A stretch of 35,738 nucleotides of DNA from a virus, in the IMG/VR virus record IMGVR_UViG_3300017739_000039, positions 1-35,738 of that record. The stretch is one strand, 5' to 3'. The position numbers were made by a program, and so were the translations under genes. The notes under the pieces are model-generated. The model made no database searches. It was not told where the DNA came from and worked only from the letters and a program-made list of their open reading frames with translations. Shown here piece by piece: positions 9,270-25,416 of the stretch (positions within the stretch are counted from its first letter, which is position 1; every line of letters begins with the position of its first letter).

Positions 9270-9283
9270 AGGGAGATTGACTT

Positions 9284-9814
9284 ATGGCTACTTATGATAT
9301 GACAGCAAAAGCAACTACTGGCGTAAACTCCGACAGTATTGCTGAACCAAGATCACGTTTCCAATCAAACGGCATGTACATCCGTGAGGCTGTGCTTGAC
9401 TTTGATAAGATGACTGCTGCAGGTTGGACTGCTGCTAACGGTGACATCTTTCAACTACTAGAGATTCCTGCTGACACTATGGTGTTATTTGCAGGTGCTT
9501 ATGTTGAAGCTGCTGCCAATGGCTCATCTCCAACTGTTGACATTGACTTTGCCGAAGGTGATGACATTGTTGACGGTGGCGCAATCGACTCAGTTGGTTG
9601 GTTGGCATCAGGTACTAACGGTAGTGCTATGACTACTTCAGGTACTTTGACATTCACACAACACACAACTTCTACAGACACAGTTGACGTTAAGTTAATT
9701 GCTGCTTCTGCAGACGTTACATCTGGACGCATTCGTGTTGTCGCAGGTTGTATGGATACAGGTATCTCTGGTCGAGTAAGACCAGTTGACGTAGATCGTG
9801 ATCTACTAGCATAA
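9284..9814 (+). CDS. probable head decoration or minor virion protein
   Basis: 176 residues, beta-rich, dominated by Thr, Ala, Gly, Asp and Ser, with a single cysteine (VVAGCMDTG). It lies 14 bases after the capsid gene in the same transcript and ends just before a hairpin at 9825. Proteins of this size and composition directly after the capsid gene are often capsid decoration or stabilising proteins. No specific domain is recognised, so the function is inferred from place and composition only. The ribosome binding site is AGAGGGAG before the ATG. Confidence 0.65.
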   Translation: MATYDMTAKATTGVNSDSIAEPRSRFQSNGMYIREAVLDFDKMTAAGWTAANGDIFQLLEIPADTMVLFAGAYVEAAANGSSPTVDIDFAEGDDIVDGGAIDSVGWLASGTNGSAMTTSGTLTFTQHTTSTDTVDVKLIAASADVTSGRIRVVAGCMDTGISGRVRPVDVDRDLLA

Positions 9815-9824
9815 ATAAAACTTT

Positions 9825-9848
9825 AGGGGCAGGGAGACTTGCCCCTTT
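9825..9848 (+). terminator. hairpin after the capsid operon, weak intrinsic terminator
   Basis: AGGGGCA (9825-9831), an 8-base loop, and TGCCCCT (9840-9846) form a seven-pair GC-rich stem followed only by TTTAG. The short T-run suggests partial termination. It would lower transcription into the tail genes relative to the capsid genes, or protect the 3' end of capsid mRNA. Confidence 0.6.
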
Positions 9849-9871
9849 AGCTTATCTGAAGGATTTTTGTA

Positions 9872-10600
9872 ATGGCTACATACGTTACTTTAGTTAACGA
9901 ACTACTGCGTAGGTTGAACGAAGTTACTCTTGATACAGCAGGAGATGGCTTCACTGCTGTACGTAATGTTCAAGCATTAGCTAAAGATGCGGTAAACAAC
10001 TCCATTAGAAATATCTTACAGACAGGTCAGGAATGGCCTTTTTTAAAAACTACTCAAACACAAACCCTAGTAGCAGGAACTAGACAGTATGATTTTCCTG
10101 CTGATTATTCTAGGGCAGACTGGCAAACTTTTTATATTAAGAAGTTAACATCTGTAGACAATACCCCTATGTCTCTTCCTACAATTAGTTACGAAGAATA
10201 CATTCAAAGATACAGACATTTTGATGATACAGGAGATCAAACAGGAATATCTGCACCAACTTTAGTCTATCAAACGGATGAATCAAAGTTTGGGGTTACT
10301 CCTATCCCAGATCAAGCCTACGAAATAGAGTATGTATACTACAAATTTCCTGCTGACTTAACTGCTTTTAGTGATACAGCAATAATACCTGAAAGATTTA
10401 AACACGTTCTTATTGATGGTGCTATGATGTACATGATGAGATTTAGATCTAATGAGCAGAGTGCTGCAATGCATCAAGCTAACTTTGATTTAGGTATAAA
10501 GTCAATGAGAAGAATACTTGTTGATGAGCCATTAAGAGTAAGGTCAACAGTTGTAGATAGGATAAACTCTTCTAATCAGGTTTTAGGTAGAGTCCTCTAA
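9872..10600 (+). CDS. tail connector / tail tubular protein A-like
   Basis: 242 residues. The N-terminus (MATYVTLVNELLRRLNEVTL) and the helical region AKDAVNNSIRNILQTGQEWP are followed by QTLVAGTRQYDFPADYSRAD and IPERFKHVLIDGAMMYMMRF. This pattern is common to adaptor proteins of marine podoviruses related in role to T7 gp11. It would form the ring attaching the tail to the portal. GAAGGA at 9858-9863 is the ribosome binding site. The stop overlaps the next start (TAATG), so the pair is translationally coupled, as expected for two connector subunits. Confidence 0.75.
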   Translation: MATYVTLVNELLRRLNEVTLDTAGDGFTAVRNVQALAKDAVNNSIRNILQTGQEWPFLKTTQTQTLVAGTRQYDFPADYSRADWQTFYIKKLTSVDNTPMSLPTISYEEYIQRYRHFDDTGDQTGISAPTLVYQTDESKFGVTPIPDQAYEIEYVYYKFPADLTAFSDTAIIPERFKHVLIDGAMMYMMRFRSNEQSAAMHQANFDLGIKSMRRILVDEPLRVRSTVVDRINSSNQVLGRVL

Positions 10601-12138: not shown

Positions 12139-15129
12139 ATGGCAGGTTATACAAGACAATCAGTAGCTGACATTATTGCTAATGCAGTCATTAAAGCTGC
12201 ACCAGTAAACGCAGAATACAATGCTATTCGTGATGCTTTTGCTGCATCAGGTGGACACAAACATGATGGTAGTACAGGTGAAGGTGCTTATGTACCTCTT
12301 ATAGCTGATGCTGATGCCCTAAACAAAGTCACAGTAGATACATCAAATAACAGAATTAGTTTCTTTAATGAAGTATCTTCTTCTGCTGTAGAACAGATTA
12401 GATTAGAAGATGGTGTACTTAAACCTGTAACTGATAATGATATAGACCTTGGTGCTTCAGGTGCAGAGTTTAAAGATCTGTACGTAGATGGGATAGGTTA
12501 TATTGACTCTGTAGTTGTTGGAGATAATAATTATTTAACAATAACAAATAACGAGATTGATGTATCCTCTGGTAATCTTACCCTAGATGTAGCAGGAGAT
12601 ATTATTCTTGATGCAGATGGTGGTGATGTAACTCTTAAAGATGCAGGAACTACTTATGCTAACTTAAAAAATTCTTCTGGGGAGTTGGTTCTTCAAAGTG
12701 GTAGTACACCTACAACAGCAATAACTTTTAGTGGTGCTAATGCAGACTTTGCAGGAACTCTTGATGTTACAGGGGCAGTAACTCTAGACAGCACATTAGC
12801 TGTTACAGGAACAACTGCTCTTACAGGTACAGCAACTATTACCTCTGCTGACATTAACTCTGGTGCTATGGATAATACTACCATTGGTGCAGGTACTCCT
12901 GCAGCAGGTACGTTTACAGATCTTACAGCTTCAGGCACTACTACGATAACAACTGCAGACATTAATGGTGGAGCAATAGATGGTGTTACTATTGGTGGGT
13001 CTTCTGCAGGTGCAGGTACATTTACAGACTTAACAAGCACAGGAACATCGACACATGCTACGGTGGATATTAATGGTGGTGCTGTGGATGGCACAACAAT
13101 TGGTGCTTCTAGTGCTGCGGCAGCTAGCTTTACAACTGTTTCTACATCTGGTCAGGCGACATTGGCGACTGCTGATATTAATGGTGGTACTATTGATGGT
13201 GCTATTATTGGGGGTAGTACTGCTGCAGCCATAACAGGTACAACTATAACTGCAAGTAGTAACTTTGCAGGTAATATTACAGGTGATGTAACAGGTGATG
13301 TAACAGGTGATGTTACTGGTGACATAACAGGAAGTGTAACAGGTAACGTAACTGCAGGTTCTGGCTTATCTACATTTAACAATGTAACAGTCAACGGAAC
13401 ACTAGACGTTACAGGTACAACAATTGCTAACGTTACAGATCCTAGTAATGCACAAGATGCTGCGACTAAAAATTATGTTGACACACAGGTATCAGGGCTT
13501 GTTGACTCAGCACCTGGAACACTAAACACACTCAACGAACTAGCTGCAGCCATTAACGATGATGCAAGTTTTAGTACAACCATTACAAATAGTATAGCTA
13601 CTAAGTTACCACTAGCAGGTGGTACAATGTCTGGTGCTATAGCAATGGGTACAGCTAAGATTACAGGGCTAGGTGATCCAACAGCTAATCAAGATGCAGC
13701 AACTAAAAAGTACACAACAGATACATTCTTACCATTAGCAGGTGGAACTCTGACAGGTGCAGTAGCAGCAGGTAGTAACAAGATTACTGCTAGTTATACG
13801 CCAAGTGCTAGTGCTGATCTCACAACAAAAACATACGTAGATGGTATACTTGGTTCAGCTACTGCAGCTTCTACTTCAGCATCTGCTGCTGCTAGTTCTG
13901 CCACTGCTGCTGCCTCAAGTGCTACTGCTAGTGCTTCCTCTGCAACTGCTGCAGCTTCTAGTGCAACCTCTGCAGCAGCCAGTTTTGATTTGTTTGATGA
14001 CAGATTTCTTGGTGCTAAGTCATCTGCTCCTAGTACAGACAATGATGGTGATGCTCTTCAAGTAGGAACTTTGTATTTTAATACCACTTCTAATTCTATG
14101 CAGGTCTTTGGTGGTTCTGGTTTTACTGCTGCAGGTTCATCTGTAAATGGAACTTCAAGTCGTAACACGTATACTGCAACTGGTGGGCAAACAACATTTT
14201 CAGCTACATACGATTCTGGTTTTGTAGATGTATTTATGAATGGTATAAAATTATTATCAGGAACAGACTTTACAGCTACGTCAGGAACTACTATAGTTTT
14301 AGCAGCAGGTGCTATTGCAGGTGATATACTTGACATTGTTGCTTATGGTACATTTACCCTAGCTACACACTATACCAAAACAGAGGCAGATGCGAGATAC
14401 TTACTAGAGGCTAATAACCTCTCTGACCTAACTAGTGCAGCAACAGCAGTAACTAATTTAGGTATTACTGCCACAGCAGCAGAGCTTAACATCATGGATG
14501 GTGTAACAGCAACTGCTGCTGAACTAAACATATTAGATGGAGTAACAGCAACTGCTGCAGAGTTAAACAAATTAGATGGTATTAGTGCAACAACCACTGA
14601 GTTAAATATTCTTGGAGGTGTGACTGCAACCACAGCAGAATTAAATATTTTAGATGGGGTGACTGCAACTACTGCAGAATTAAACATAGTAGATGGCGTC
14701 ACAGCTACCACTGCAGAACTTAATATCTTAGATGGTGTAACTTCTACTACTGCTGAATTAAATATTCTTGATGGAGTTACAGCTACTGCTGCAGAGTTAA
14801 ATTTTGTTGATGGAGTTACATCAAATATACAAACCCAACTTAATACTAAAGGTGGAACGTTTACAACAAACGTTATTACATCAAACACAACTGCAGTTGG
14901 AAGTAATCACTACTACTTAAATGCTGCAGGTATTACACTTACACTTCCTTCATCTCCTACAGTAGGTGACGAAGTTAGAATTTCTGAAGTAGGTAGTAAT
15001 ACTGACAATGTTATTGGACGTAATAGTAGTAACATCATGGGTTCAGCAGAAGACATTACTATAGATACAGCATACACAGTAATTTATTTAAGATATGTAG
15101 ACTCGACTATTGGTTGGGCATTCTCGTAA
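12139..15129 (+). CDS. long tail fibre protein with several tandem repeat blocks
   Basis: 996 residues, no cysteine seen. The N-terminal part (about 1-140) has NAEYNAIRDAFAASGGHKHD and DLGASGAEFKDLYVDG, common in marine phage fibres. Then come about four copies of a roughly 36-residue unit around DINGGAIDGVTIGGSSAGAG, six copies of VTGD (12-base unit), an Ala/Ser-rich seven-residue-like repeat region, a beta domain (NTYTATGGQTTFSATYDSGF) and nine copies of a 13-residue TATTAELNILDGV unit. The C-terminal region (LTLPSSPTVGDEVRISEVG) is a small beta domain. It is most likely a trimeric fibre for host contact, with a variable repeat shaft. The start follows the nozzle stop directly. Confidence 0.85.
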   Translation: MAGYTRQSVADIIANAVIKAAPVNAEYNAIRDAFAASGGHKHDGSTGEGAYVPLIADADALNKVTVDTSNNRISFFNEVSSSAVEQIRLEDGVLKPVTDNDIDLGASGAEFKDLYVDGIGYIDSVVVGDNNYLTITNNEIDVSSGNLTLDVAGDIILDADGGDVTLKDAGTTYANLKNSSGELVLQSGSTPTTAITFSGANADFAGTLDVTGAVTLDSTLAVTGTTALTGTATITSADINSGAMDNTTIGAGTPAAGTFTDLTASGTTTITTADINGGAIDGVTIGGSSAGAGTFTDLTSTGTSTHATVDINGGAVDGTTIGASSAAAASFTTVSTSGQATLATADINGGTIDGAIIGGSTAAAITGTTITASSNFAGNITGDVTGDVTGDVTGDITGSVTGNVTAGSGLSTFNNVTVNGTLDVTGTTIANVTDPSNAQDAATKNYVDTQVSGLVDSAPGTLNTLNELAAAINDDASFSTTITNSIATKLPLAGGTMSGAIAMGTAKITGLGDPTANQDAATKKYTTDTFLPLAGGTLTGAVAAGSNKITASYTPSASADLTTKTYVDGILGSATAASTSASAAASSATAAASSATASASSATAAASSATSAAASFDLFDDRFLGAKSSAPSTDNDGDALQVGTLYFNTTSNSMQVFGGSGFTAAGSSVNGTSSRNTYTATGGQTTFSATYDSGFVDVFMNGIKLLSGTDFTATSGTTIVLAAGAIAGDILDIVAYGTFTLATHYTKTEADARYLLEANNLSDLTSAATAVTNLGITATAAELNIMDGVTATAAELNILDGVTATAAELNKLDGISATTTELNILGGVTATTAELNILDGVTATTAELNIVDGVTATTAELNILDGVTSTTAELNILDGVTATAAELNFVDGVTSNIQTQLNTKGGTFTTNVITSNTTAVGSNHYYLNAAGITLTLPSSPTVGDEVRISEVGSNTDNVIGRNSSNIMGSAEDITIDTAYTVIYLRYVDSTIGWAFS
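12838..13257 (+). repeat. about four approximate 36-residue coding repeats in the fibre
   Basis: The protein unit ADINGGAIDGVTIGGSSAGA plus GTFTDLTSTGT recurs with divergence. DINSGAMDNTTIGAG, DINGGAIDGVTIGGS, DINGGAVDGTTIGAS and DINGGTIDGAIIGGS mark the four copies. The unit is about 108 bases. Boundaries are approximate. Confidence 0.7.
13276..13347 (+). repeat. six tandem 12-base repeats encoding (V/I)TG(D/S/N)
   Basis: Consecutive codons read ITGD, VTGD, VTGD, VTGD, ITGS, VTGN. The three central DNA copies (13288-13323) are near identical (GTAACAGGTGAT), so the block could expand or contract by slippage. Confidence 0.85.
13855..13983 (+). repeat. Ala/Ser-rich repeat encoding a helical linker
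   Basis: The fibre frame encodes AAASSATAAASSATASASSA and similar, a roughly seven-residue periodic Ala/Ser/Thr tract. Such tracts in phage fibres are thought to form coiled or elongated linkers. DNA copies are degenerate around GCTGCTTCTAGTGCA. Boundaries are approximate. Confidence 0.7.
14467..14817 (+). repeat. nine tandem 39-base repeats encoding TATTAELNILDGV
   Basis: Nine units of 13 residues follow one another without gaps (variants TATAAELNIMDGV, TATAAELNKLDGI, SATTTELNILGGV, TSTTAELNILDGV and so on). The repeat is widespread in marine phage fibres. Two more units occur in the separate gene at 16725. Confidence 0.9.
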
Positions 15130-15141
15130 GGAAAAATAAAC

Positions 15142-16710
15142 ATGGCAAATATTAGTTCATTCTTTGGTGGTTCAGGTGGCAGTGGTTTAAGTACTGACTT
15201 CACTAAAAACGATTATGGTGTGCCACTCCCTGAATACATTACTTGTATTACTCACAAGTCCTCATGTACTATAACAGTCTGTCCAGGATATACATTTGAC
15301 AGTAATTCTAAAGGTTTTTCTCAGGGTGGTATTACAAATGTTAGAGACAACATTTTTATTGCTACAGGGGTAGAGCATCCTTTTACTAACAGTGATTGCA
15401 CAAAAATATTTGCAATGGCTTTTTGTGTTAATGATGACACTGGTGCTATTGTATCAGGTATGACAGAGTTTAAATGTGTTTTTCAAAGTGCTAGTACTAA
15501 TGACAGGTTTGCAGGAGAAACTCAAACACCTGGAGTTGGTGATGGTTGCTGTAGGGCTTATTATGGTCACGCATGTTCTGGTTGTGGAAGTTACACAATA
15601 CTTTGTACTAACAGTTCTTTTAACTGTATTGGTACTAGCTCTGCCACTCGATATGGTTGTAGTGCTGCAGGTGGTTCAACATCCCTAGTTTACAATGGTG
15701 TTCCTGGTTCAGTACTAGCTCACGCAGGTAATAACGAAGATCAAAACTCTTTTATTCGTTTTTGTAATGGTAATGTTTGTTTTAATAACAATCTAGGTAA
15801 TTCTTTAGGTTGTACAAATTGTTTTGCTAGTAGTAATTTAAGAGGAAAGTATGCACTAAGTCCTAACACTATTCTTTTGACTGGGATTTTTATGTGTGGT
15901 GGTGATTGTATTTGCCATAAAACAATTTTGTTTCAATGGAATGATGCAAATGATTGTTATAGAATGGCCTACTGTAAAGGAGAAAGTGGGTCACAAGTTA
16001 CAAATAGTAACTATGTCTGTTGTATCCTATGTTGCCACAGCCCTGGTCATGTTCTAGGAACTTCTTTTAGAGTTGGTCCAACCTTTTATCCTGAAGGTGG
16101 AGGTGCTTCATTTTATCACGAACCAGACTGTCAAAATTGCATAAGACAAAAGTTTTGTGTAAATGGAGGATGTTGTAGAGCTATGCACCCCCACTCTGTC
16201 TTGTTAAATTGGGAGGGGCAAAATCATTGGAATATGCAGATGAAAGGCACTAGAGGTAAAGATGATGCTTCCTCTACCTGTTACTATGCAACTAATAATG
16301 ACTTTACTATGAACTGGGTTTCTAACAGTAGTTGTATTTCTAACAGAGTTGGTCATTATGTTGGTGTACAACAAAATGGTGTGCTAGGTGCAGGTATAGC
16401 TCAAAAAAGTTGCTTTGCTTTTAATTGTGGTAATTTTGGGCAAGGTACAAGACAAGAGACTTATGGATCTTGGTCTACTCCACATGGTGAGTCTGTTAGA
16501 CAACTTTATCAGTATCCTAGAACAGCCCTAAGATCTTATCCTATACCACAATTTTGTAATTGCTATCAAACTTGTTGTTTTCATTTCTTAGCATCACAAG
16601 TTGTAGGATGTAAATGGATTGTAACTATGGAGTCAAGTCAGTGTTGCCAGTGTGAATGTGTAACATTACATGCTTACAAGATTATGACTAACTCATGTAC
16701 AGCAGATTAG
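15142..16710 (+). CDS. extremely cysteine-rich tail-region protein 1 (45 Cys in 522 aa)
   Basis: The first 20 residues (MANISSFFGGSGGSGLSTDF) form a short start and Gly/Ser linker like other phage fibre proteins. The rest is beta-rich with 45 cysteines (8.6%), including six Cys-Cys pairs and many CxC or CxxC spacings (CTITVC, CGGDCIC, CCILCC, CNCYQTCC, CCQCEC). No known metal-binding or repeat family is recognised. The even spread of cysteines through the chain argues against a single zinc finger domain. It lies between the fibre and mini-fibre genes in the same transcript. A tail fibre or receptor-binding role is inferred. Flanking structural proteins are almost cysteine-free, so the composition is specific to this gene and the one at 17420. 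Confidence 0.8.
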   Translation: MANISSFFGGSGGSGLSTDFTKNDYGVPLPEYITCITHKSSCTITVCPGYTFDSNSKGFSQGGITNVRDNIFIATGVEHPFTNSDCTKIFAMAFCVNDDTGAIVSGMTEFKCVFQSASTNDRFAGETQTPGVGDGCCRAYYGHACSGCGSYTILCTNSSFNCIGTSSATRYGCSAAGGSTSLVYNGVPGSVLAHAGNNEDQNSFIRFCNGNVCFNNNLGNSLGCTNCFASSNLRGKYALSPNTILLTGIFMCGGDCICHKTILFQWNDANDCYRMAYCKGESGSQVTNSNYVCCILCCHSPGHVLGTSFRVGPTFYPEGGGASFYHEPDCQNCIRQKFCVNGGCCRAMHPHSVLLNWEGQNHWNMQMKGTRGKDDASSTCYYATNNDFTMNWVSNSSCISNRVGHYVGVQQNGVLGAGIAQKSCFAFNCGNFGQGTRQETYGSWSTPHGESVRQLYQYPRTALRSYPIPQFCNCYQTCCFHFLASQVVGCKWIVTMESSQCCQCECVTLHAYKIMTNSCTAD

Positions 16711-16724
16711 TAGAGGAATAGTAA

Positions 16725-17054
16725 ATGAGTAAAGCAAGAGACTTAGCCAATCTACTGTCTACAGGAGGTGTCCTGAACGATGGTGTTATAAGTGTATCAG
16801 AAATTGAAAGTGTTACTGCTACTGCGACAGAGTTAAACCTTATGGATGGTGTCACTGCAACTACTGCAGAGCTTAATCATGTTGATGGTGTGACATCTAA
16901 TGTTCAAACTCAAATCAATGCAAAGGCAGCAACTGCTAGTCCTACATTTACTGGAACTGTAACTGCTCCTACTGTAAATGCTACAACTGATCTGACTGTA
17001 AACTCTGTATCTGTTACAACAGAAACCGAATTAAGAAAATCTTTCTTACTATAA
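16725..17054 (+). CDS. mini tail-fibre protein with TAAELN repeats
   Basis: 109 residues. The start MSKARDLANLLSTGGVLND is typical of marine phage fibre proteins. Two or so units of the TAAELNxxDGV repeat follow (VTATATELNLMDGV, VTATTAELNHVDGV), then VTSNVQTQINAK and a short beta tail. The order repeat-VTSN(I/V)QTQ(L/I)N matches the C-terminal end of the long fibre at 12139, so this looks like a shortened paralogue or a detached fibre segment. It may trimerise with, or adapt, the flanking cysteine-rich proteins. The gene is intact, with GAGGAATAG as ribosome binding site. Confidence 0.75.
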   Translation: MSKARDLANLLSTGGVLNDGVISVSEIESVTATATELNLMDGVTATTAELNHVDGVTSNVQTQINAKAATASPTFTGTVTAPTVNATTDLTVNSVSVTTETELRKSFLL

Positions 17055-17069
17055 AAATGGAATATTGAC

Positions 17070-17420
17070 ATGGCTTTTACTTACTCTCTATTAACAGAAA
17101 TAACACAGATAGCTGCAAGTGCAGGTGCAGTGTATACTAATCCTTCTAGTAAAACTACCTTTATAAGGTCTATTATACTTCATAATGCAAACTCTTCTGC
17201 AGAAGCTGTAGTTCTTTATAATGTTCCAGATAACGGTGGTTCAGTAGGTACAGCAGCTATAGCTAATCAATTTTATAAAGCAAGTGTTGCAGCAGAGAGT
17301 ACTGTAATAATTGAGTTTGCTACACCTGGTGTTGTTTTAGAAGATGTAAACGACACAATACAGGCAAGTACAACTACTGCTAGTAAAGTGACTATACAAA
17401 TTATGGGAGCAACTGAATAA
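17070..17420 (+). CDS. small beta-rich virion-associated protein
   Basis: 116 residues, no cysteine, mostly predicted beta strands (KTTFIRSIILHNANSSAEAV, STVIIEFATPGVVLEDVND, SKVTIQIMGATE). Small proteins with the FIRSIILHNAN...VVLY pattern occur in phage tail-fibre regions and look like a beta-sandwich trimerisation or attachment domain. It lies in the fibre transcript and its TAA overlaps the next ATG (TAATG), coupling it to the large cysteine-rich protein. A partner role for that protein is inference. Confidence 0.68.
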   Translation: MAFTYSLLTEITQIAASAGAVYTNPSSKTTFIRSIILHNANSSAEAVVLYNVPDNGGSVGTAAIANQFYKASVAAESTVIIEFATPGVVLEDVNDTIQASTTTASKVTIQIMGATE

Positions 17421-19858
17421 TGGGTATAACAGTTTTTCCACCAAGTACAAGTTCAGGGAGTAGTGGTGGCTCTGAAAAACCTTACAAGTGTATTCCTGCT
17501 TGTGGTGCAGTAGCTGCAGGTGATTTAGTCTCTTTAACTCCAGGAGAATGTGTAGTTCGTTCTTCAGTTAAAGGAGCAGACCAAGACGAAATGGCTTGTT
17601 TCTGTAATGGTAATGGTTCACAAAATGTTACATTAGGAGCATGGAATGTAGTAGTTCCTTTCTTGTGTGCAAATAATTGCTATGCACAAGTAACATTACA
17701 TAATGGTGAAAAATGTACAGATGGCTTTGCAGAGTGTTGTTGGAGATGCCCTTGTATTTTAGTTAATGCTGTTACAGTAAACTCTGATCAAAGCACTACT
17801 TGCTGTACAATATATAGTTGTTGTATTCTTTTAGGAACAGCAAGTTGGCAGTGTTATAATAGTGCAGGTGAATGTTGCTGTGCTCAATTACAATTCTGCT
17901 CTGCACCCATTGTTCTTCCTTCTTGTTCAGGTCATAAGTCAGCAATATTTTTACCTTGTAATAAACAGTTTTTAAAGTGTAATTCAAATTGTTGTATATG
18001 TGATATTTATCAACAAGAAATTTGGTTGTGTTATAATACAACTTCAAATGTAGTATCAGTCATCTGTAGTTGTTGTAATATTGAAGGTCTTAGTGCAACT
18101 GCTACTAACTTCTGTAAATGTGATAAGTTTTATTATTTTGTTAGTAATGACAGAAAATATTTAGTTGGACAAAAAGCAAGAGGATATCCAAGTAGTGCAG
18201 GAGATTCAGGTCTTAAAAAAGAATACATTGTAAAATGTGTAAATGATAACTCTTACTTAGGTATTACTGCTGCAACAGTTACAGGTTTCAATCCTTGCTC
18301 TGTTTGGTGTAGTACTTGCTGTACTCAATTTTCACCTAGTTTTTCTTTTGGTGCTTTTGGATGGGCCCCATTTAGTCAAGGACAAGATGGATGGATGCTT
18401 GGTAGATTTGTTGTAGACAAGAACCCTCAAACAGGTTCTTGTTGTTGTTTCTTTACAAAAACATGGGCTATTAAACCTACTGCTGATTGTGCAATAACAA
18501 TGTCAGCAAATATTCTTTGTGACGTAGATGGTAGTTGTAACTTGGTAACTTCAAGAACAGGCTACTACGCAATTAAAGAAGCTAAACAAGCATCTTGTAG
18601 ATTTACAACTCAAAGTAATACTGCTTGTCTGATAGGAGTTGGAAGAGTATGGGATGAAGGTGACTGTGTTAAAAAAGTTTCTCTCCCTACGTTTCATCCT
18701 TGCACTGGTTGCTGTAGAGTAGTTGCAGGTCTTGCTTGTTTTTGCATAGATGGAAGCTGTAATATTCAGTTTATGGGAGGGCAAAGTTGTGATGCCAATG
18801 ATGGTCAAGTTTGTTGCACTTGTAGTCAGGCTTGCAAACCACTTGCTAATGGCTACTATATTGATTCTAATGACTTCACTTGTAAATTCTATGCATGTAG
18901 TCAAATAGGGCATGGTTGTGATTTATCTGCTGTGCCATGTTTAAAAGGAGGTCAGTATGGTGGAACTCTGTCTTGTAGTGCTGATAGCTTTTTATATTAC
19001 AACTCTTATCCTACCTGTATACAACAAGGTAGATATAGAACTGCGTTACCCCACCAGTACATACATGGAAGTGGAACAGGCTATGACTATAGTCGTGACG
19101 CATTAGAGTGTGCTAAACTTCCTGAAGGTGGTACTGGTTGTCAGTCACTTGTTGAAGGAACTGATGGTCAAGATTACAAGTCTGCTTCAGAGTACAAACT
19201 TTGTGCTTGTACAACTTGTTGGAATTTAAATTGTAATGCTTTATTTACTAAAATTTTAGATGGAATTTGTGCAGGTAATAGAAACCCTGCAGATCACTTC
19301 TTTCATCCTGGAAGTTGTTGTTTAGCTTTTTCAGGTGGTTTCTTTCCACTAGGTACTAGTTCAACAGCCTTTATTGCTGCTCAAGGACCATCTGGGCAAT
19401 TTAACCAATGGTGTAGATGTTGCGTAATTAGTGTAAGGGCGTGGAGTCAAGTTTTTCATAAAGATGTTAAAGCCTCTACGATGGGTAGAACTTATGGTAT
19501 TGCTCAAAATACTGCAGCAAATGGAGAAATAGTATGTGTTGCAGTACAGGGTAATATTGATAAATCCCCATTTACTTGCACACAATTAGCTGCTAGATAT
19601 ACTGCTTCTGGTCCTGTTGCTCTGTGTGGAGGAGTATGCTGTGGTCAGCTTACAGGTTTTATAGCATGTAAGTGTACTGATAAACATACTAAGGGATCTG
19701 GTGCTCCACATGCTTGTTACTTTCGTGGGTTTGAACAAGGTGGTTGTTGCACTAATTGTCAAGTAAGACATGCTTATATTACACCTTACTATGATGCTAC
19801 AGAAGAACATTTAGTAGGAAAAATTTCAACTAGGAATGATGATTTAGAAAACATATAG
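17420..19858 (+). CDS. extremely cysteine-rich tail-region protein 2 (87 Cys in 812 aa)
   Basis: 87 cysteines in 812 residues (10.7%), spread from residue 24 to about 783, with about 14 CC or CCC clusters (ECCC, SCCC, CTCCTQ-like) and many CxC. The N-terminus is a short segment and Ser/Gly linker, then CIPACGAVAAGDLVSLTPGE, which resembles the usual phage fibre opening (xGAIAAGDxVxLxxDG) with cysteines inserted at other residues. Cys codons are mostly TGT. Strand-like blocks alternate Cys with hydrophobic residues. No known domain is identified. A receptor-binding or particle-surface role is inferred from its place as the last gene of the fibre block. The frame is real: 812 codons are uninterrupted, coupled by TAATG to the gene before. 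Confidence 0.82.
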   Translation: MGITVFPPSTSSGSSGGSEKPYKCIPACGAVAAGDLVSLTPGECVVRSSVKGADQDEMACFCNGNGSQNVTLGAWNVVVPFLCANNCYAQVTLHNGEKCTDGFAECCWRCPCILVNAVTVNSDQSTTCCTIYSCCILLGTASWQCYNSAGECCCAQLQFCSAPIVLPSCSGHKSAIFLPCNKQFLKCNSNCCICDIYQQEIWLCYNTTSNVVSVICSCCNIEGLSATATNFCKCDKFYYFVSNDRKYLVGQKARGYPSSAGDSGLKKEYIVKCVNDNSYLGITAATVTGFNPCSVWCSTCCTQFSPSFSFGAFGWAPFSQGQDGWMLGRFVVDKNPQTGSCCCFFTKTWAIKPTADCAITMSANILCDVDGSCNLVTSRTGYYAIKEAKQASCRFTTQSNTACLIGVGRVWDEGDCVKKVSLPTFHPCTGCCRVVAGLACFCIDGSCNIQFMGGQSCDANDGQVCCTCSQACKPLANGYYIDSNDFTCKFYACSQIGHGCDLSAVPCLKGGQYGGTLSCSADSFLYYNSYPTCIQQGRYRTALPHQYIHGSGTGYDYSRDALECAKLPEGGTGCQSLVEGTDGQDYKSASEYKLCACTTCWNLNCNALFTKILDGICAGNRNPADHFFHPGSCCLAFSGGFFPLGTSSTAFIAAQGPSGQFNQWCRCCVISVRAWSQVFHKDVKASTMGRTYGIAQNTAANGEIVCVAVQGNIDKSPFTCTQLAARYTASGPVALCGGVCCGQLTGFIACKCTDKHTKGSGAPHACYFRGFEQGGCCTNCQVRHAYITPYYDATEEHLVGKISTRNDDLENI

Positions 19859-19934: not shown

Positions 19935-20861
19935 GTGAAAAAACTATTTTTTATTGATGGGGGAGCAGGTCGTGCTATTGCATCTATACCTGCTTTCCTA
20001 AAGTATGCAAAGAAACATGATGACTTTGGTATACTAGTGCATGGATGGGATTCTCTGTACTGGGGTATTCCTGAACTACAAGACAAAGTTTTTAACCCTG
20101 AACAAAAAGGTATCTTTGATCAAGTAGTAAAAAATGCTGAAGAACTTGTATCTCCTGAACCATATCGAGTACCAGGATACTTTAAACAAGAGTTATCTTT
20201 AGCAGAAGCATTTGATGTTTTAATAAATAACACAGATGATCATTCTGATCTACAGTCTCCTATTATTAAAACAAACAAAGTAGAAGAAGTAAACGCAGCT
20301 AAATTAATTTTAGATGCTAAGGCTCAACAGCAAAAAGATAAGACTATTGTTATTCAGCCTTTTGGTAGATCAATGCAACGAACTGAAATAGATGCAGTTA
20401 TTGATGAATCATCAAGGTCACTAGACTCAGAGGTATACTTAAAACTAGTTAAGAAACTGGCTACAAAGTACAACCTAGTATTAATGGCAGAGCAACCTTT
20501 TCACTCTGACGTAGATACCTACACAATTAAACCTAATGCTGATCTAAGATTGTGGGCAGCATTTATTGATGCAGCAGATTACTTTGTTGGAGTAGACTCT
20601 GTTGGACAACATATGGCAAGGGCGTTAGATAAACCTGGCACAGTTATTATTGGGTCAACCTTTGCAGTAAATACTTCATATCCAAACTATTTTAATATTT
20701 GGGAAAGGAAAGTTCAGAAAAAGTATTCACCTATTCGTATCTCAGGTCTTGAGGGTCACTTGGCAGATAGACTTAATGAGAAGACTATGGAACTCACTGA
20801 CGAAGAAGTAAATCAGTTGTACCAAAGTATTACTAAAGATATAGAAAAAAAGGTGAAGTAA
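19935..20861 (+). CDS. GT9-type (heptosyltransferase-like) glycosyltransferase
   Basis: 308 residues. Two Rossmann-like halves are expected for a GT-B fold. The C-terminal half contains IVIQPFGRS (near 145) and DAADYFVGVDSVGQHMARAL (near 211-230), close to the family 9 signature A..FIGVDSG..H.A.AL.kP, ending in GTVIIGST. Family 9 enzymes transfer heptose from ADP-heptose in the cytoplasm, usually to lipopolysaccharide core and occasionally to protein serine. The N-terminus FFIDGGAGRAIASIPA fits a donor-site glycine-rich loop. GTG start with a weak AGAAAGAAGA site. Its neighbours encode ADP-heptose synthesis, which strongly suggests the donor. The acceptor is unknown. Confidence 0.78.
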   Translation: MKKLFFIDGGAGRAIASIPAFLKYAKKHDDFGILVHGWDSLYWGIPELQDKVFNPEQKGIFDQVVKNAEELVSPEPYRVPGYFKQELSLAEAFDVLINNTDDHSDLQSPIIKTNKVEEVNAAKLILDAKAQQQKDKTIVIQPFGRSMQRTEIDAVIDESSRSLDSEVYLKLVKKLATKYNLVLMAEQPFHSDVDTYTIKPNADLRLWAAFIDAADYFVGVDSVGQHMARALDKPGTVIIGSTFAVNTSYPNYFNIWERKVQKKYSPIRISGLEGHLADRLNEKTMELTDEEVNQLYQSITKDIEKKVK

Positions 20862-20862
20862 T

Positions 20863-22566
20863 ATGAACATCCTAGCTATTAACCCAGGTCACAATGGTTC
20901 TGCTGCTTTACTAGTAGATGGCGAACTAAAGTTTTATATTGAAGAGGAACGTCTATCTCGTAACAAGTATGATGGCAACCCTTTTGCAGGAATAATGGAA
21001 GCACTAAAGTATGGTGTAGACATCCTTGTTCTTGGTGGTACTTCAGAACATTTTCCACAGTTACCTTGGACAGGTGAAGATCCTTACTCTGGTTTTTTAC
21101 GTAAGTTTAATCGTAACCTTCAAGTTATAAATCTAGGTCATGCACATCATTTAGGTCATGCAGCAGGAGCTTTTTATAACTCTGGTTTTGACGAAGCTGC
21201 AGCAGTTATTGTTGATGGCTCTGGCACTCACAGACAAATTGATATTAACGGTGACTATAAAAACTCAGGTTTTGAAACAGAGTCTATATATAAGTGTGAC
21301 TATGAAGAGGGTATAAAAGAAGTCTTCACTTCTTATGGGGGTAACTACGATACCCAACGTGTTAGTAACGAAAACATAGAGATGGATAGTGCTATTACAG
21401 TAGTAAAGGCATACGAAGCTGTCTCAGAGTATCTTGGTTTTGGTTTTATTGAAGCAGGTAAAACTATGGGTCTTGCACCCTATGGTAAGTACGATGAAAT
21501 GATTCCTAGTCTGTTTTATAATAGTAGGGGAAACAAGAATGTATTTATCCCTAATTATCCTGCAGGTGCTCACATTGATCACACTCGTCACCCTTACTTA
21601 ACCTTAACAGAAAATCCTAAAGATTGGCACAAAGATCCTAGTAAGGTAACAGATGCTGCAAAGAATCTAGCTTGGGCTGTACAAGATGAGACACAAACAC
21701 TTGTTGGTGATCTAATACAAAAAGCAGTTGATAAGACAGGACAAACAAACATTGTTATTGCAGGAGGTTATGGATTAAACTGTGTAGCAAACTACTACTA
21801 CAAGAAACGTTTTCCTGACCTTAACATTTATGTTGATCCTATCTCTCATGATGGTGGTACATCTATTGGTCTAGCACAAATAGTCCATTACACAGAGACA
21901 AAAGAAAAAACAAAACGTCCACTAAATACTTTGTACCTTGGTCCTGAACGTAAAGAAAACTACGATCTAGAAGAATACGAAACAAAAAATGTTACTGCTG
22001 CTGATGTAGCTAAGTTAATTGCAGATAAAAACATTGTTACTTTGTTTCAAGGCAGATCAGAAGCAGGACCAAGAGCACTAGGAAATCGTTCTATACTCTA
22101 TGATCCTACAGACCCTAAAGGCAAGGACACAGTAAACAAGGTTAAAGGTCGTGAATGGTTTAGACCATTTGCAGGATCAATGCTCAAGGAATACTTTGAG
22201 GAATGGTTTGATACATACGGTATGGAAGAGACACCATTCATGATGTATGCAATGGACTTCAAGACTGAGAAGCATGGTGAAGTTCCTGCTATCACGCACG
22301 TAGATGGTACATGTCGTATTCAAACTGTAACTAGAGAGCAGAACGAGTCTTACTACGATTTGATTGAAGAGTTTCGTAAGATTACTGGTGTACCTATTTT
22401 GTTTAATACAAGTTTTAACCTAGCAGGTCAGCCACTTGTAGAAACATTAGAGGATGCACTATATACAATGAAGAACTGTGATATTGAGTATCTATATTTA
22501 CCTGACGTAGGTAAACTTGTTATGGTAACTTCTGAGCAAACTGAAGAAGATTCTCAAAAACCTTAG
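20863..22566 (+). CDS. O-carbamoyltransferase, NodU/TobZ/CmcH family
   Basis: 567 residues, full length for the family. The N-terminal ASKHA/Kae1-like domain starts MNILAINPGHNGSAALLVDG, has metal-binding HHLGH (95-99) and VDGSG (Asp118), and continues with GKTMGLAPYG and HDGGTSIG. The C-terminal YrdC-like half carries GRSEAGPRALGNRSI near residue 397. These enzymes make carbamoyl adenylate from carbamoyl phosphate and ATP and carbamoylate a hydroxyl, for example on Nod factors, tobramycin, or heptose of Pseudomonas LPS core (WapO). Here the heptose neighbours suggest a heptosyl glycan as substrate, an inference. It starts one base after the glycosyltransferase stop. Its 3' end overlaps the opposite-strand phosphatase by 47 bases. 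Confidence 0.9.
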   Translation: MNILAINPGHNGSAALLVDGELKFYIEEERLSRNKYDGNPFAGIMEALKYGVDILVLGGTSEHFPQLPWTGEDPYSGFLRKFNRNLQVINLGHAHHLGHAAGAFYNSGFDEAAAVIVDGSGTHRQIDINGDYKNSGFETESIYKCDYEEGIKEVFTSYGGNYDTQRVSNENIEMDSAITVVKAYEAVSEYLGFGFIEAGKTMGLAPYGKYDEMIPSLFYNSRGNKNVFIPNYPAGAHIDHTRHPYLTLTENPKDWHKDPSKVTDAAKNLAWAVQDETQTLVGDLIQKAVDKTGQTNIVIAGGYGLNCVANYYYKKRFPDLNIYVDPISHDGGTSIGLAQIVHYTETKEKTKRPLNTLYLGPERKENYDLEEYETKNVTAADVAKLIADKNIVTLFQGRSEAGPRALGNRSILYDPTDPKGKDTVNKVKGREWFRPFAGSMLKEYFEEWFDTYGMEETPFMMYAMDFKTEKHGEVPAITHVDGTCRIQTVTREQNESYYDLIEEFRKITGVPILFNTSFNLAGQPLVETLEDALYTMKNCDIEYLYLPDVGKLVMVTSEQTEEDSQKP

Positions 22567-23164
22567 TCTTCTTTCTTAGTTTCTCTTTCGAGAACTTCTG
22601 AAGATCTTTTTCAGTAGCTACCCCATGACCAGTACGTACTAAGATTGGGGTAGCACCAATACGTTCTGCAGCTTTAAGGTCTGTAATCTTGTCACCTACA
22701 AAAAACCCTCTATCTTTAAATCTGTACTTATTATTAAATAATTCTTTTTCTGCTCTGTGAAACATACCTATATTAGGTTTAGCAAAGCAATCACATTTAA
22801 GTGAAGATTCAGAATAAAACAAACCATCAATGGAGTAGACACCTGCATTACCAAAGACTTGCATCATACGTTGATGGACAGCTTCTACTTGGTCATGTGT
22901 CTGCTCTTTTTTTATAATACCACCCTGATTGGTTAGTATAACTAGTTTATATCCTTTGAGTCTAATCATACGAATAGCTTCAAGAGATCCTGGGATAACT
23001 TCCCAATCATCAGGATCAGAGATGTAACCTTTATCTATATTAATTACACCATCTCGATCTAGACCAACAATTGACTTAGGAAATACTTTAGGCCAATCGT
23101 CAGGAACATTTTGCTGTTGAATCTGTTGTGGGTCTTGTTCTATTATATGTTTAAATCTAGACAT
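22520..23164 (-). CDS. gmhB: D-glycero-D-manno-heptose 1,7-bisphosphate 7-phosphatase (GmhB-like, HAD)
   Basis: 214 residues, HAD superfamily. Motif I is GLDRDGVIN (Asp36, Asp38), motif II LTNQGG (77-82), motif III Lys129 in AKPNIGM, motif IV VGDKITDLKAA (Asp158, Asp162). The order and spacing match GmhB/HisB-N phosphatases, which remove the 7-phosphate from heptose 1,7-bisphosphate. The GmhB zinc loop is incomplete: the CDC half is present (Cys124, Cys126) but the preceding CxH is replaced by SES and the loop is shortened. An N-terminal extension of about 30 residues is Gln-rich. It is the only - strand gene in the cassette. It has a near-perfect promoter 7 bases from its ATG and no Shine-Dalgarno, so it is probably translated from a leaderless mRNA. 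Confidence 0.85.
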   Translation of the reverse strand: MSRFKHIIEQDPQQIQQQNVPDDWPKVFPKSIVGLDRDGVINIDKGYISDPDDWEVIPGSLEAIRMIRLKGYKLVILTNQGGIIKKEQTHDQVEAVHQRMMQVFGNAGVYSIDGLFYSESSLKCDCFAKPNIGMFHRAEKELFNNKYRFKDRGFFVGDKITDLKAAERIGATPILVRTGHGVATEKDLQKFSKEKLRKKTKVFENLLQFAQKLP

Positions 23165-23170
23165 GGTGTA

Positions 23171-23199
23171 ATTTTAAGTATGAAGAAGATATTTGTCAA
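23171..23199 (-). promoter_or_regulatory. consensus promoter for the inverted gmhB gene (leaderless)
   Basis: On the - strand, TTGACA (23199-23194) and TAAAAT (23176-23171) are separated by exactly 17 bases. Six bases (TACACC) lie between the -10 box and the ATG at 23164, so transcription should start at or next to the start codon. The -35 lies inside the divergent nucleotidyltransferase gene. Confidence 0.65.
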
Positions 23200-23590
23200 T
23201 GGAGCATTTGATGTAGTGCATTCAGGACACCTTGATCTACTTGATTTTGCTAGAGGTTTAGGCACTCATCTTCTCGTAGCTATTGACACAGATAGGCGTA
23301 TTGAGTATAACAAGGGAAAAGAAAGACCTTTCAATAAACTCAAGAATAGAAAACATTTAATTAGTTCGTTGAAATCTGTTACAAGTGTAGTAACGTTTGA
23401 CACAGACAATGATCTTCTTGCGATTCTTCAGAGGTATAAACCAGATGTAATGGTAAAAGGTTCTGACTGGAGGGGAAAAGAAATTATAGGGGAGGAGTAC
23501 TGTAAAGAGGTAGTCTTCTATGAAAGAGTCAACAAAGAGTCAAGCACCAAAATCCTTAAAAGTTTTGTTGATAGGAGACAGTTGTTATGA
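23180..23590 (+). CDS. hldE-C (rfaE2-like): D-glycero-beta-D-manno-heptose 1-phosphate adenylyltransferase (HldE C-domain-like)
   Basis: 136 residues equal to one nucleotidyltransferase domain. The N-terminus MKKIFVNGAFDVVHSGHLDL contains the GxFDxxHxGH signature (HSGH at 14-17). It continues FARGLGTHLLVAID, PDVMVKGSDWRGKEIIG and SSTKILKS, which line up well with the C-terminal half of HldE (VKGGDYKPEEIAG and CSTTNIIKK in E. coli). It would couple heptose 1-phosphate with ATP to give ADP-heptose. The start at 23180 is chosen over an in-frame ATG at 23111 because it gives the canonical N-terminus; the longer form would run through the divergent gmhB start. It overlaps the kinase gene by 71 bases. 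Confidence 0.88.
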   Translation: MKKIFVNGAFDVVHSGHLDLLDFARGLGTHLLVAIDTDRRIEYNKGKERPFNKLKNRKHLISSLKSVTSVVTFDTDNDLLAILQRYKPDVMVKGSDWRGKEIIGEEYCKEVVFYERVNKESSTKILKSFVDRRQLL

Positions 23591-24281
23591 TGAATATCAT
23601 TATGGTTCTGTAAATAGAATTAGTCCTGAAGCTCCTGTTCCTATATTTGATTTACATGACACCGTTTCAAAAAAAGGAATGGCGTACAACGTACACAATA
23701 ATCTTGTAAATCTAAAACTTAAAGTAGATATTATAACAGAGTACTCTGAACGTAAGCATAGGTATGTTGATATTAAAACAGGTCAACAGCTTATAAGAAT
23801 AGACGAAAAGATAAAGAAACAATTCTTTGATAACGCAGAACAAATCTTAGATAACTATGCAGCAGTAATAGTTTCAGACTACAATAAAGGATTTGTTGCT
23901 GACAACGAAATAGAAGATCTTATAAAAAAGTACAAAGGTCCTATCTTTGTAGACACTAAGAAAAAAGATCTAGCCCAATTTGATGGTTGCTTTGTAAAAA
24001 TAAACCAGTACGAGTACGAAGCACGAGAGTCAGATACCGAAGAACTTATAGTTACATACGGCTCAAAGAAAGTCGAGTATAAAAACAGAACCTACATTCC
24101 TCCGAAAGTAGAAACTCATGATGTGTGTGGTGCAGGTGACACCTTTCTAGCTGCCCTTGTCTATAAGTATTTAGAAAAACAAAGTATAGACGAGGCTATA
24201 AGGTTTGCAATGAATGCAGCAGCAGTTACGGTGCAACATATAGGTGTCTATGCCCCAACACTAGAGGAAATTACTAGATGA
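23520..24281 (+). CDS. hldE-N (rfaE1-like): heptose 7-phosphate kinase (HldE N-domain-like, PfkB family), compact
   Basis: 253 residues against about 315 for the bacterial domain. LKVLLIGDSCYDEYHYG and RISPEAPVPI are near-exact counterparts of the HldE kinase N-terminus. LIRIDE, VSDYNKGF, VDTKKKD and the PfkB signature DVCGAGDTF (201-209, catalytic Asp207) follow. About 35 residues corresponding to the lid region after VDIIT are missing. It would phosphorylate D,D-heptose 7-phosphate at O-1. In bacteria this domain is usually fused before the nucleotidyltransferase; here it is separate and placed after it, overlapping by 71 bases. AGAGG about 10 bases upstream supports the ATG. Its TGA overlaps the cupin ATG. 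Confidence 0.86.
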   Translation: MKESTKSQAPKSLKVLLIGDSCYDEYHYGSVNRISPEAPVPIFDLHDTVSKKGMAYNVHNNLVNLKLKVDIITEYSERKHRYVDIKTGQQLIRIDEKIKKQFFDNAEQILDNYAAVIVSDYNKGFVADNEIEDLIKKYKGPIFVDTKKKDLAQFDGCFVKINQYEYEARESDTEELIVTYGSKKVEYKNRTYIPPKVETHDVCGAGDTFLAALVYKYLEKQSIDEAIRFAMNAAAVTVQHIGVYAPTLEEITR

Positions 24282-24634
24282 GGCTTGAAGGATTTGTAGA
24301 AAAAGGTTGGGGGTCTGAGTTTATATGGGCAACTAACGACAAATACTGTGGTAAATTTTTAAAGTTTAACAAAGGTGCAAAGTTTTCAATGCACTTCCAC
24401 AAAGAAAAAGATGAGACTTGGTTTGTTATATCAGGTAAATTTAAAGTCGTATGGATTGACACAGAAAACGCAGAACATAAAGAAGTTTCTTTGTTAGAAG
24501 GAGATGTTTGGCACAATCCACCACTAGTTCCTCATCAAGTAATTTGCTTAGAAGAGGGGAGTCTAATGGAAGTCTCTACTCCTGATTCTGTAGAAGACAA
24601 TTACAGAGTTGGTAAGGGTGACAGCCAAGAATGA
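24278..24634 (+). CDS. cupin sugar-phosphate enzyme, mannose-6-phosphate-isomerase-like
   Basis: 118 residues, a single cupin domain. Motif 1 is complete: Gly33, His39, His41, Glu46, Gly53 with the standard spacing (the core is SMHFHKEKDETW). Motif 2 gives Pro81 and His86, so all four metal ligands are present. The opening GWGSEFIWATNDKYCGKFL resembles cupins of the type II mannose-6-phosphate isomerase group found in sugar-nucleotide clusters. No GmhA (SIS-domain) isomerase is in the window, so this cupin is a candidate for making D,D-heptose 7-phosphate from sedoheptulose 7-phosphate, or for another isomerisation. That is inference. It is coupled to its neighbours by ATGA-type overlaps on both sides. 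Confidence 0.75.
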   Translation: MRLEGFVEKGWGSEFIWATNDKYCGKFLKFNKGAKFSMHFHKEKDETWFVISGKFKVVWIDTENAEHKEVSLLEGDVWHNPPLVPHQVICLEEGSLMEVSTPDSVEDNYRVGKGDSQE

Positions 24635-25416
24635 AAATACTAGTTACTGGTCACAAAGGGTTCATTGGTCAGAACATGGTCAATGCCCTAAAAGATAAAC
24701 ATCAAATTTCTACGTATGAGTGGGGGAATCAATACCCAATACTAGATGGTCTTGATTGGGTAATACACTTAGGAGCAGTAAGCTCTACCACAGAAAAAGA
24801 CATACGTAAGATAACAGTACAGAATATTGAGTCCTCTATATATTTGTATGAAGACTGTATAGAAAGAGGAATAAACTTTCAGTTTGCTAGTTCTGCTTCA
24901 GTCTATGGTTTAGATCCTTGTGGTTTTAAAGAGACTGCAGTCTTAAATCCCCTGAATCATTATGCTAGAAGTAAAGCTCTATTTGAGAACTACATCAAAT
25001 ACAGAGATGCTCCTATAATAACTCAAGTATTTAGATACTTTAACGTATACGGTGATCACGAAGATCATAAAGGAGAACAGGCAAGTCCTTATACTAAGTT
25101 TAGAAAGCAAGCAAAAGAAACTGGAAAGATAAAACTATTCAAGAACTCAGAATATTTTTACAGAGATTTTATTCACGTAGACAAGATTATAGAGTATCAT
25201 CAAAAGTTTTTCTCTATAGAAAAGTCAGGTGTCTGGAACGTAGGTACAGGTTTTGAAAGAAGTTTTTACGAGGTTGCTTTAGAAATATGTAAAGAAACAG
25301 AAGCAACTATCGAGTGGATAGAGATGCCAGAAAATTTAAAGAATAGTTATCAAGACTTTACTAGGGCAGATACGGTTAAACTATGGCAGACGTTAGACTT
25401 ACCACAGAAGAATTAG
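24631..25416 (+). CDS. hldD: ADP-L-glycero-D-manno-heptose 6-epimerase (HldD-like), compact
   Basis: 261 residues against about 310 for HldD. It is an extended short-chain dehydrogenase: TGHKGFIGQ dinucleotide loop (6-14), SSTTEKD, and YxxxK as Tyr111 and Lys115 (YARSK). The HldD-specific FRYFNVYG (134-141) is followed by HKG with Lys147, equivalent to the catalytic Lys178 of E. coli HldD, then FYRDFIHVDKI and WNVGTGFERSF. It would invert C6 of ADP-D,D-heptose. About 25 residues are missing near the N-terminal nucleotide-ribose region, and roughly 25 at the C-terminus, where the gene ends shortly after SYQDFTRAD. The next gene starts 34 bases inside it. Key residues are intact, so activity is plausible. 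Confidence 0.88.
   Translation: MKILVTGHKGFIGQNMVNALKDKHQISTYEWGNQYPILDGLDWVIHLGAVSSTTEKDIRKITVQNIESSIYLYEDCIERGINFQFASSASVYGLDPCGFKETAVLNPLNHYARSKALFENYIKYRDAPIITQVFRYFNVYGDHEDHKGEQASPYTKFRKQAKETGKIKLFKNSEYFYRDFIHVDKIIEYHQKFFSIEKSGVWNVGTGFERSFYEVALEICKETEATIEWIEMPENLKNSYQDFTRADTVKLWQTLDLPQKN

What the first reader, a model, noticed from the sequence alone, without database searches (positions are those of the whole stretch)
15142..16710. Second cysteine-rich protein (45 Cys in 522 aa) with little obvious similarity to the first
Seen: 8.6% Cys with CC, CxC and CxxC spacing, Gly/Ser linker at the start as in the 812-residue protein, but otherwise no clear alignment by eye. Two different proteins in one fibre block sharing the same extreme composition suggests a shared selection (same chemistry, same partner) and not chance drift in one gene.
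Basis: partly seen in the sequence, partly recalled or inferred. Interest (0 to 1): 0.72.

Follow-up and report, generated by a model that had tools for sequence, protein, structure and literature searches.

The report
Cysteine-coated phage fibres with linked glycosyltransferase
This phage gene makes a host-attachment protein studded with surface cysteines; the same oddity recurs in some thirty unrelated proteins, nearly always next to one unusual sugar-transferring enzyme, so the cysteines are probably attachment points for sugars, a form of protein decoration not previously described.

Summary
In detail: 45 Cys in 522 aa, against 0-2% in almost every other ORF of the window. The two Cys-rich proteins share only a 19-residue N-terminal anchor. 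I collected 125 Cys-rich proteins (about 5-13% Cys) in 31 families without detectable mutual similarity, from marine and freshwater phages, cyanomyoviruses and one archaeal contig. Almost all lie beside a GT9 (heptosyltransferase-fold) enzyme like window 19935-20861, usually with a NodU/TobZ-like carbamoyltransferase. Homologous or same-slot fibres without the enzyme have ordinary Cys. The Cys stand where control fibres have D, S, T and E, not hydrophobics; they are well conserved but drift singly, without disulfide or metal spacing. The enzyme keeps the sugar-donor site but has lost the catalytic Asp that activates a hydroxyl acceptor (Arg in 17/17). Best explanation: the cysteines are mass acceptors for S-linked (carbamoyl-)heptose, a Cys analogue of TibC/AIDA-I hyperheptosylation. 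The linkage is shown, surface position is supported by substitution patterns, and the S-glycosidic bond is inferred. The association is not absolute: 7 of 61 informative enzyme-positive loci showed no Cys-rich protein.

The parts
15142..16710 (+). 522-aa Cys-rich fibre-block protein (45 Cys); N-terminal anchor (residues 1-15) plus Cys-rich body of unknown fold
   Evidence: No Pfam, PHROG or PDB match; AlphaFold model unusable (pLDDT 27)
17420..19858 (+). 812-aa second Cys-rich fibre-block protein (87 Cys), unrelated body, same 19-residue anchor
   Evidence: no family match
12139..15129 (+). 996-aa tail fibre with no Cys; its conserved N-terminus was used for the natural experiment
   Evidence: PHROG tail fiber hits; 80 loci sharing it
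16725..17054 (+). Small Cys-free protein (MSKARDLA...) between the two Cys-rich genes; the slot recurs in relatives
17070..17420 (+). 116-aa Cys-free protein preceding the anchored Cys-rich protein (phrog_20100)
19935..20861 (+). GT9-like glycosyltransferase with heptosyltransferase fold, the constant partner; catalytic Asp replaced by Arg13
   Evidence: phrog_8954; weak heptosyltransferase HMM hits; model pTM 0.79, VIA Z 21.3 GT9 3tov, 19.4 WaaF, 17.8 WaaC and TibC, next unrelated enzymes 12.9; active-site alignment
20863..22566 (+). NodU/TobZ-like carbamoyltransferase, frequent second partner (absent from the Vibrio/Aeromonas stretches read)
   Evidence: PF16861 4e-62 and PF02543; PDB TobZ 5e-51; absent in L033, L034, L129 stretches
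22520..23164 (-). GmhB-like heptose-bisphosphate phosphatase
   Evidence: PRK08942 5e-41, below curated cut-off
23111..23590 (+). HldE domain II-like heptose-1-phosphate adenylyltransferase
   Evidence: TIGR02199 1e-30, below cut-off
23520..24281 (+). HldE domain I-like heptose-7-phosphate kinase
   Evidence: TIGR02198 3e-37, below cut-off; PfkB Pfam 8e-15
24278..24634 (+). Cupin protein of the sugar cassette
   Evidence: PF07883 2e-9
24631..25416 (+). HldD-like ADP-heptose 6-epimerase
   Evidence: TIGR02197 2e-63, below cut-off

Best explanation
The 522-aa and 812-aa proteins are exchangeable attachment proteins of the phage tail. Their abundant surface cysteines are acceptor sites for a sugar added inside the infected cell by the linked GT9-like enzyme (19935-20861). 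The donor is probably ADP-heptose, made by host and phage genes, and the heptose is probably then O-carbamoylated by 20863-22566. The result would be fibres coated with S-linked (carbamoyl-)heptose, serving adhesion, solubility or shielding. Shown: Cys enrichment across unrelated families, tight linkage to the enzyme, ordinary Cys in enzyme-less homologues, Cys in place of polar residues, heptosyltransferase fold (predicted model), and loss of the hydroxyl-activating Asp. Inferred: surface exposure, the S-glycosidic bond, the sugar's identity, which gene products act on which residues, and the benefit to the phage.
For: (1) Forward: of 61 informative new enzyme-positive loci, 48 have a strongly Cys-rich ORF and 6 a moderately enriched fibre. 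The enzyme-positive cyanophage and marine records whose neighbourhood I read all have Cys-rich proteins. (2) Reverse: 80 loci fetched with a Cys-rich query; the enzyme is visible in 65, and the other 15 contigs end within 1.8 kb of the last Cys-rich ORF. (3) Natural experiment: 21 loci with the same fibre N-terminus and visible downstream ORFs; Cys-rich only in the two with the enzyme and one truncated contig, the other 18 at 0-1.4% Cys. (4) Vibrio tail proteins: 23-24 Cys in the first 520 residues with the enzyme; 2-6 in homologues from phages without an enzyme hit. (5) An archaeal MAG contig has a Tat-like-leader Cys-rich protein beside enzyme and carbamoyltransferase. (6) Against control fibres the 9.1-point Cys gain is paid mainly by D, S, T, A, V, E; hydrophobics unchanged. 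When Cys changes it swaps with N, D, E, R, P and avoids L, I, M. (7) The catalytic Asp of WaaC (TibC Asp110) is Arg in 17/17 homologues; Asp261 is kept. (8) ADP-heptose gene set and heptosyltransferase fold.
Against: No biochemical evidence of modification. Seven enzyme-positive freshwater phage loci show no Cys-rich ORF in view, including a 58-kb contig read in full. The fold match cannot separate LPS from protein acceptors (WaaC and TibC tie). Arg13 also occurs in the exceptional loci. No usable model of a Cys-rich body exists, so exposure is inferred from substitutions. Loci are phylogenetically related, so counts are not independent.
Confidence: 0.58

Rival explanations
1. The enzyme and carbamoyltransferase modify host LPS core (added carbamoyl-heptose, for example to exclude superinfection), and Cys-rich fibres are a separate adaptation that travels in the same adsorption module.
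For: Weak LPS heptosyltransferase HMM hits; WaaF/WaaC fold; Pseudomonas LPS carries carbamoyl on HepII, assigned to WapO (PMC8005017); freshwater phages with the enzyme but no visible Cys-rich protein.
Against: Does not explain why 31 unrelated families become Cys-rich with the enzyme, the archaeal instance (archaea lack LPS), or loss of the hydroxyl-activating Asp.
Confidence: 0.14
2. The cysteines form dense disulfides that armour extracellular fibres; sugar genes are incidental or act on Ser/Thr.
For: Fibres are extracellular; Cys are more conserved than average residues.
Against: Single unpaired gains and losses (44 v 43, 29 v 30, 83 v 82); density kept while positions turn over at about 33% identity; Cys in likely helical repeats of Vibrio tail proteins; Ser/Thr depleted by 6 points; no explanation for the linkage.
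Confidence: 0.11
3. The cysteines bind metal (iron, zinc or copper), extending the HxH iron-binding tail fibre idea.
For: HxH iron sites proposed in marine phage fibres (PMC11705849).
Against: No CxxC excess (172 v 165 expected); positions drift singly; no reason for linkage to a glycosyltransferase.
Confidence: 0.05
4. Cysteines are modified, but differently: direct S-carbamoylation, or a sugar other than heptose.
For: NodU/TobZ-like enzyme usually present; weak HypF similarity (E 0.009), and HypF carbamoylates a Cys thiol (own knowledge).
Against: Carbamoyltransferase absent beside the enzyme in the Vibrio/Aeromonas stretches read; present without Cys-rich proteins in S-SSM5. The GT is the constant partner.
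Confidence: 0.12

Closest known systems
TibC / AAH (BAHT) hyperheptosylation of TibA / AIDA-I autotransporter adhesins (PMC4358343)
   Same: Adhesin gene with a linked heptosyltransferase-fold enzyme; many sites per protein; same fold (Z 17.8); ADP-heptose donor implied
   Different: Acceptor is Ser in TibC; here Cys density tracks the enzyme. Catalytic Asp110 is Arg here; the window enzyme has no Cys and so no iron finger; tail fibres instead of autotransporters; carbamoyltransferase usually added
LPS heptosyltransferases WaaC/WaaF/WaaQ (GT9)
   Same: Fold (Z 17.8-19.4); conserved DSxGxH donor motif; weak HMM similarity to heptosyltransferase III
   Different: Asp13 base and Lys192 both replaced by Arg in 17/17; all scores below the curated cut-offs
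Glycocin S-glycosyltransferases (SunS, PalS; PMC6405829)
   Same: Enzymatic sugar attachment to cysteine sulfur is known in bacteria
   Different: One specific Cys in a small peptide, different enzyme family; here tens to over two hundred Cys per protein
TobZ / NodU / WapO sugar O-carbamoyltransferases
   Same: Sequence family (PDB TobZ 5e-51); WapO is assigned to carbamoylation of LPS heptose
   Different: Substrate here unknown; linked to Cys-rich fibres
Gly_rich_2 (PF21722) phage fibre domain
   Same: S-SSM7 Cys-rich 261-aa protein matches it above cut-off; the Gly-rich L009 fibres occupy the same slot
   Different: About 10% Cys placed in Gly-rich loops and strands

Membership tests
BAHT (TibC-like protein heptosyltransferase) | GT-B heptosyltransferase fold | tested here: met
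   VIA Z 17.8 to TibC (265 aligned, rmsd 3.6), tied with WaaC, below WaaF 19.4; unrelated GT-B at 12.9
BAHT (TibC-like protein heptosyltransferase) | Catalytic base Asp110 | tested here: not met
   Arg at the equivalent WaaC Asp13 column in 17/17; TibC itself was not in the alignment
BAHT (TibC-like protein heptosyltransferase) | Four-Cys iron finger | tested here: not met
   The window enzyme has 0 Cys in 308 aa
BAHT (TibC-like protein heptosyltransferase) | Gene linked to an adhesin that it hyperglycosylates | tested here: inconclusive
   Linkage to fibre-block proteins shown; modification not testable here
GT9 heptosyltransferase superfamily | Fold and donor-site Asp261 (DSxGxH) | tested here: met
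   PF01075 at 21.0 bits, just below its cut-off of 22
LPS heptosyltransferase | Catalytic Asp13 and Lys192 | tested here: not met
   Both Arg in 17/17 homologues
SunS-type S-glycosyltransferase | Sequence membership | tested here: not met
   No such family among Pfam or NCBIfam hits of the enzyme
SunS-type S-glycosyltransferase | Forms S-glycosidic bond to Cys | not testable with these tools
   Needs mass spectrometry
NodU/TobZ O-carbamoyltransferase | Carbam_trans N and C domains | tested here: met
   PF02543 5e-21, PF16861 4e-62
Metal-binding Cys protein | Excess CxxC spacing | tested here: not met
   172 observed v 165 expected
HxH iron-binding tail fibre | HxH motifs | not tested
   Only the His fraction (2.0%) was measured

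The most novel reading that the evidence does not exclude
A previously undescribed protein glycosylation system in which cysteine, not Ser/Thr/Asn, is the mass acceptor: a GT9 enzyme with an Asp-to-Arg active site S-heptosylates tens to hundreds of surface cysteines on viral fibres, and selection has repeatedly turned unrelated folds into cysteine-coated substrates.
Probability: 0.5. Interest if true: 0.95.

Novelty: categorically new. Interest (0 to 1): 0.86.

Why it matters
Phage fibres decide host range, and hypervariable Cys-rich proteins in marine phages, including cultured cyanophages P-SSM2, S-SSM7, S-CAM1 and S-CAM3, have had no explanation that I could find. If right, this gives phages a dedicated glycan coat on their adhesins, shows a rare protein-sugar linkage used on a large scale, gives a function to carbamoyltransferase and heptose genes usually filed as LPS genes, and offers an enzyme for cysteine-directed glycoengineering. 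Isolates exist, so it is directly testable.

Tried and rejected
Chance or base composition: rejected. CxxC or CC motif as signature: rejected, close to chance. Homology of the two window proteins: rejected apart from the anchor. Carbamoyltransferase as the key partner: rejected; S-SSM5 has one without the GT and no ORF over 150 aa above 3.9% Cys in the whole genome, while Vibrio/Aeromonas phages have the GT without it nearby. O-glycosylation of Ser/Thr as the reason for the composition: disfavoured, S+T down 6 points. AlphaFold of the 522-aa protein: unusable. PDB sequence search with the GT and the Cys-rich profile: nothing. More archaeal examples: 1 of 352 genomes of the order. Literature: no paper found on cysteine-rich phage fibres linked to S-glycosylation; that library is open-access PMC only.

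Full report
Observation. The ORF 15142-16710 (+) encodes 522 aa with 45 Cys (8.6%); 17420-19858 encodes 812 aa with 87 Cys (10.7%). The other structural proteins of the window have 0-3 Cys each. Base composition predicts about 19 Cys in 522 codons. Neither protein matches Pfam or PHROGs. The two proteins share no detectable body homology, only a 19-residue N-terminal anchor.

Relatives. A 65%-identical relative has 35 Cys, and there the anchor is of the type that the window has on the 812-aa protein, so anchors and bodies are exchangeable. At about 33% identity a 514-aa relative keeps 34 Cys, with 21 positions shared and 34 one-sided: density is kept while positions turn over. Neighbours of the 116-aa protein gave more genomes of the same phage group; their two slots hold different Cys-rich proteins of 240 to 903 aa, whereas an outgroup (L009) with the same 116-aa gene has ordinary Gly-rich fibres and no sugar cassette.

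A constant partner. Directly downstream lies a GT9-like enzyme (phrog_8954) and a NodU/TobZ-like carbamoyltransferase, then GmhB, HldE-I, HldE-II and HldD-like genes, i.e. most of ADP-heptose synthesis. Searching with the enzyme found Cys-rich fibre-block proteins beside it in very different viruses: freshwater-type phages (L020, L022-L024), marine single-cell viruses, cyanomyoviruses S-SSM7, P-SSM2, S-CAM1, S-CAM3 and Sf-FS3. In INPHARED, homologues of two Cys-rich cyanophage proteins fall only in phages that also belong to the enzyme-positive groups. A scan of bacterial and archaeal genomes found a contig with cellular-looking genes (enolase-, mutase- and UvrC-like by eye) in a Woesearchaeota MAG, carrying a Tat-like leader fused to a Gly-rich Cys-rich protein (8.8% Cys) beside the enzyme, carbamoyltransferase and a GmhB-like gene. 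The enzyme occurs in 1 of 352 genomes of that order, so this is probably acquired; mis-binning cannot be excluded.

Counts in both directions. Reverse: of 80 loci fetched with a Cys-rich profile, all have Cys-rich ORFs and 65 show the enzyme; the other 15 contigs end within 1.8 kb of the last Cys-rich ORF. Forward: of 70 new enzyme-positive loci, 48 have a strongly Cys-rich ORF, 6 a moderately enriched fibre, 9 are too short, and 7 show none. So the association is strong but not absolute; the exceptions look like freshwater T4-like phages with several other sugar genes, on incomplete contigs. Natural experiment: among 21 loci with the window's fibre N-terminus and visible downstream ORFs, only L036 and L057 (enzyme present) and the truncated L046 have Cys-rich proteins; the other 18 have at most 1.4% Cys. 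In Vibrio phages the tail protein beside the enzyme has 23-24 Cys in 520 residues, while homologues in phages without an enzyme hit have 2-6. S-SSM5 has a carbamoyltransferase but no enzyme hit and no Cys-rich ORF anywhere. All these loci share history to some degree, so the counts are not independent trials.

What the cysteines look like. 125 Cys-rich proteins form 31 families without BLAST similarity. Against fibres from the same slot without the enzyme, Cys rises by 9.1 points, paid by Asp -3.5, Ser -3.1, Thr -2.8, Ala -2.0, Val -2.0 and Glu -0.9, with hydrophobics constant at 27-28%. In 14 homologous pairs Cys is always more conserved than average; when it changes (202 cases) it swaps with N, D, E, R and P more than expected and with L, I and M less (some pairs share a sequence, so P-values are indicative). 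This is opposite to the usual exchange pattern of buried cysteines (own knowledge of substitution matrices). Single gains and losses occur. Spacing is near random. This fits exposed residues made polar by modification, and argues against disulfide ladders and metal sites.

The enzyme. An AlphaFold model (pTM 0.79) matches heptosyltransferases far above other GT-B enzymes: Z 21.3 (GT9 3tov), 19.4 (WaaF), 17.8 (WaaC), 17.8 (TibC), next unrelated enzymes 12.9; chloroplast NDH subunits of the same fold score 16-18. TibC heptosylates Ser residues of autotransporter adhesins (PMC4358343). Aligned with E. coli K-12 WaaC, WaaF and WaaQ, all 17 homologues, including the archaeal and Vibrio/Aeromonas ones, have Arg in place of the catalytic Asp13 (TibC Asp110) and Arg for Lys192, but keep Asp261. 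That Asp13 is the WaaC base rests on my own knowledge and on the TibC paper's superposition. Loss of the base that deprotonates a hydroxyl, with the donor site kept, is what a thiol acceptor would allow; this is inference.

Mechanism proposed. ADP-heptose is made by the host, topped up by the phage cassette; the GT9-like enzyme transfers heptose to surface cysteines of the fibres; the carbamoyltransferase, where present, caps the sugar as WapO is thought to do in Pseudomonas LPS (PMC8005017). Enzymatic S-glycosylation exists in glycocins (PMC6405829), but on a single specific Cys. Shown: linkage, composition, predicted fold and active-site change. Not shown: the bond, the sugar, or the benefit.

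On novelty. It works like TibC/AIDA-I (adhesin plus its own hyperglycosylating heptosyltransferase) but is not a member: the catalytic Asp and iron finger are absent. I rate it categorically new because no known system uses cysteine as a mass acceptor; if the S-linkage fails, the rating should drop to a new variant.

Limits. No model of any Cys-rich body; IMG/VR contigs are often partial; the 80-locus caps bias towards close relatives; the literature library is open-access only.

Noticed in passing
L115:8040-9821: Woesearchaeota MAG contig encodes a Tat-like leader fused to a phage-type Gly-rich fibre domain with 8.8% Cys, beside the GT and carbamoyltransferase: possibly a phage adhesin co-opted by a cell.
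   Followed up: partly
L232, L240, L253, L254 (phage contigs, freshwater T4-like by gene content): Carry the GT (mostly with carbamoyltransferase) amid several other sugar-related genes but no visible Cys-rich protein; the enzyme may have other substrates there or the fibre may lie off-contig.
   Followed up: partly
L018:5249-6379: First slot holds an ordinary 376-aa protein (1 Cys) while the second slot is Cys-rich: slots are independent.
   Followed up: no
L057:7922-8140 and 8154-10283: A Cys-free 72-aa protein lies beside a Cys-rich protein whose N-terminus resembles it, an internal control for where Cys are inserted.
   Followed up: partly
L034:9747-14678 (Vibrio phage K479): Tail protein repeats (AYADGIVTAEE) carry alternating Cys (ACICAC, ALVCSC) next to the GT homologue.
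   Followed up: partly
L029:19355-19711 (P-SSM2 gene 312): Annotated as cysteine dioxygenase but sits at the cupin position of the heptose cassette; probably misnamed.
   Followed up: no
L023:3736-9939: A 2067-aa ORF with 232 Cys (11.2%), the largest Cys-rich fibre-block protein seen, with segments repeated and shared with L024.
   Followed up: no
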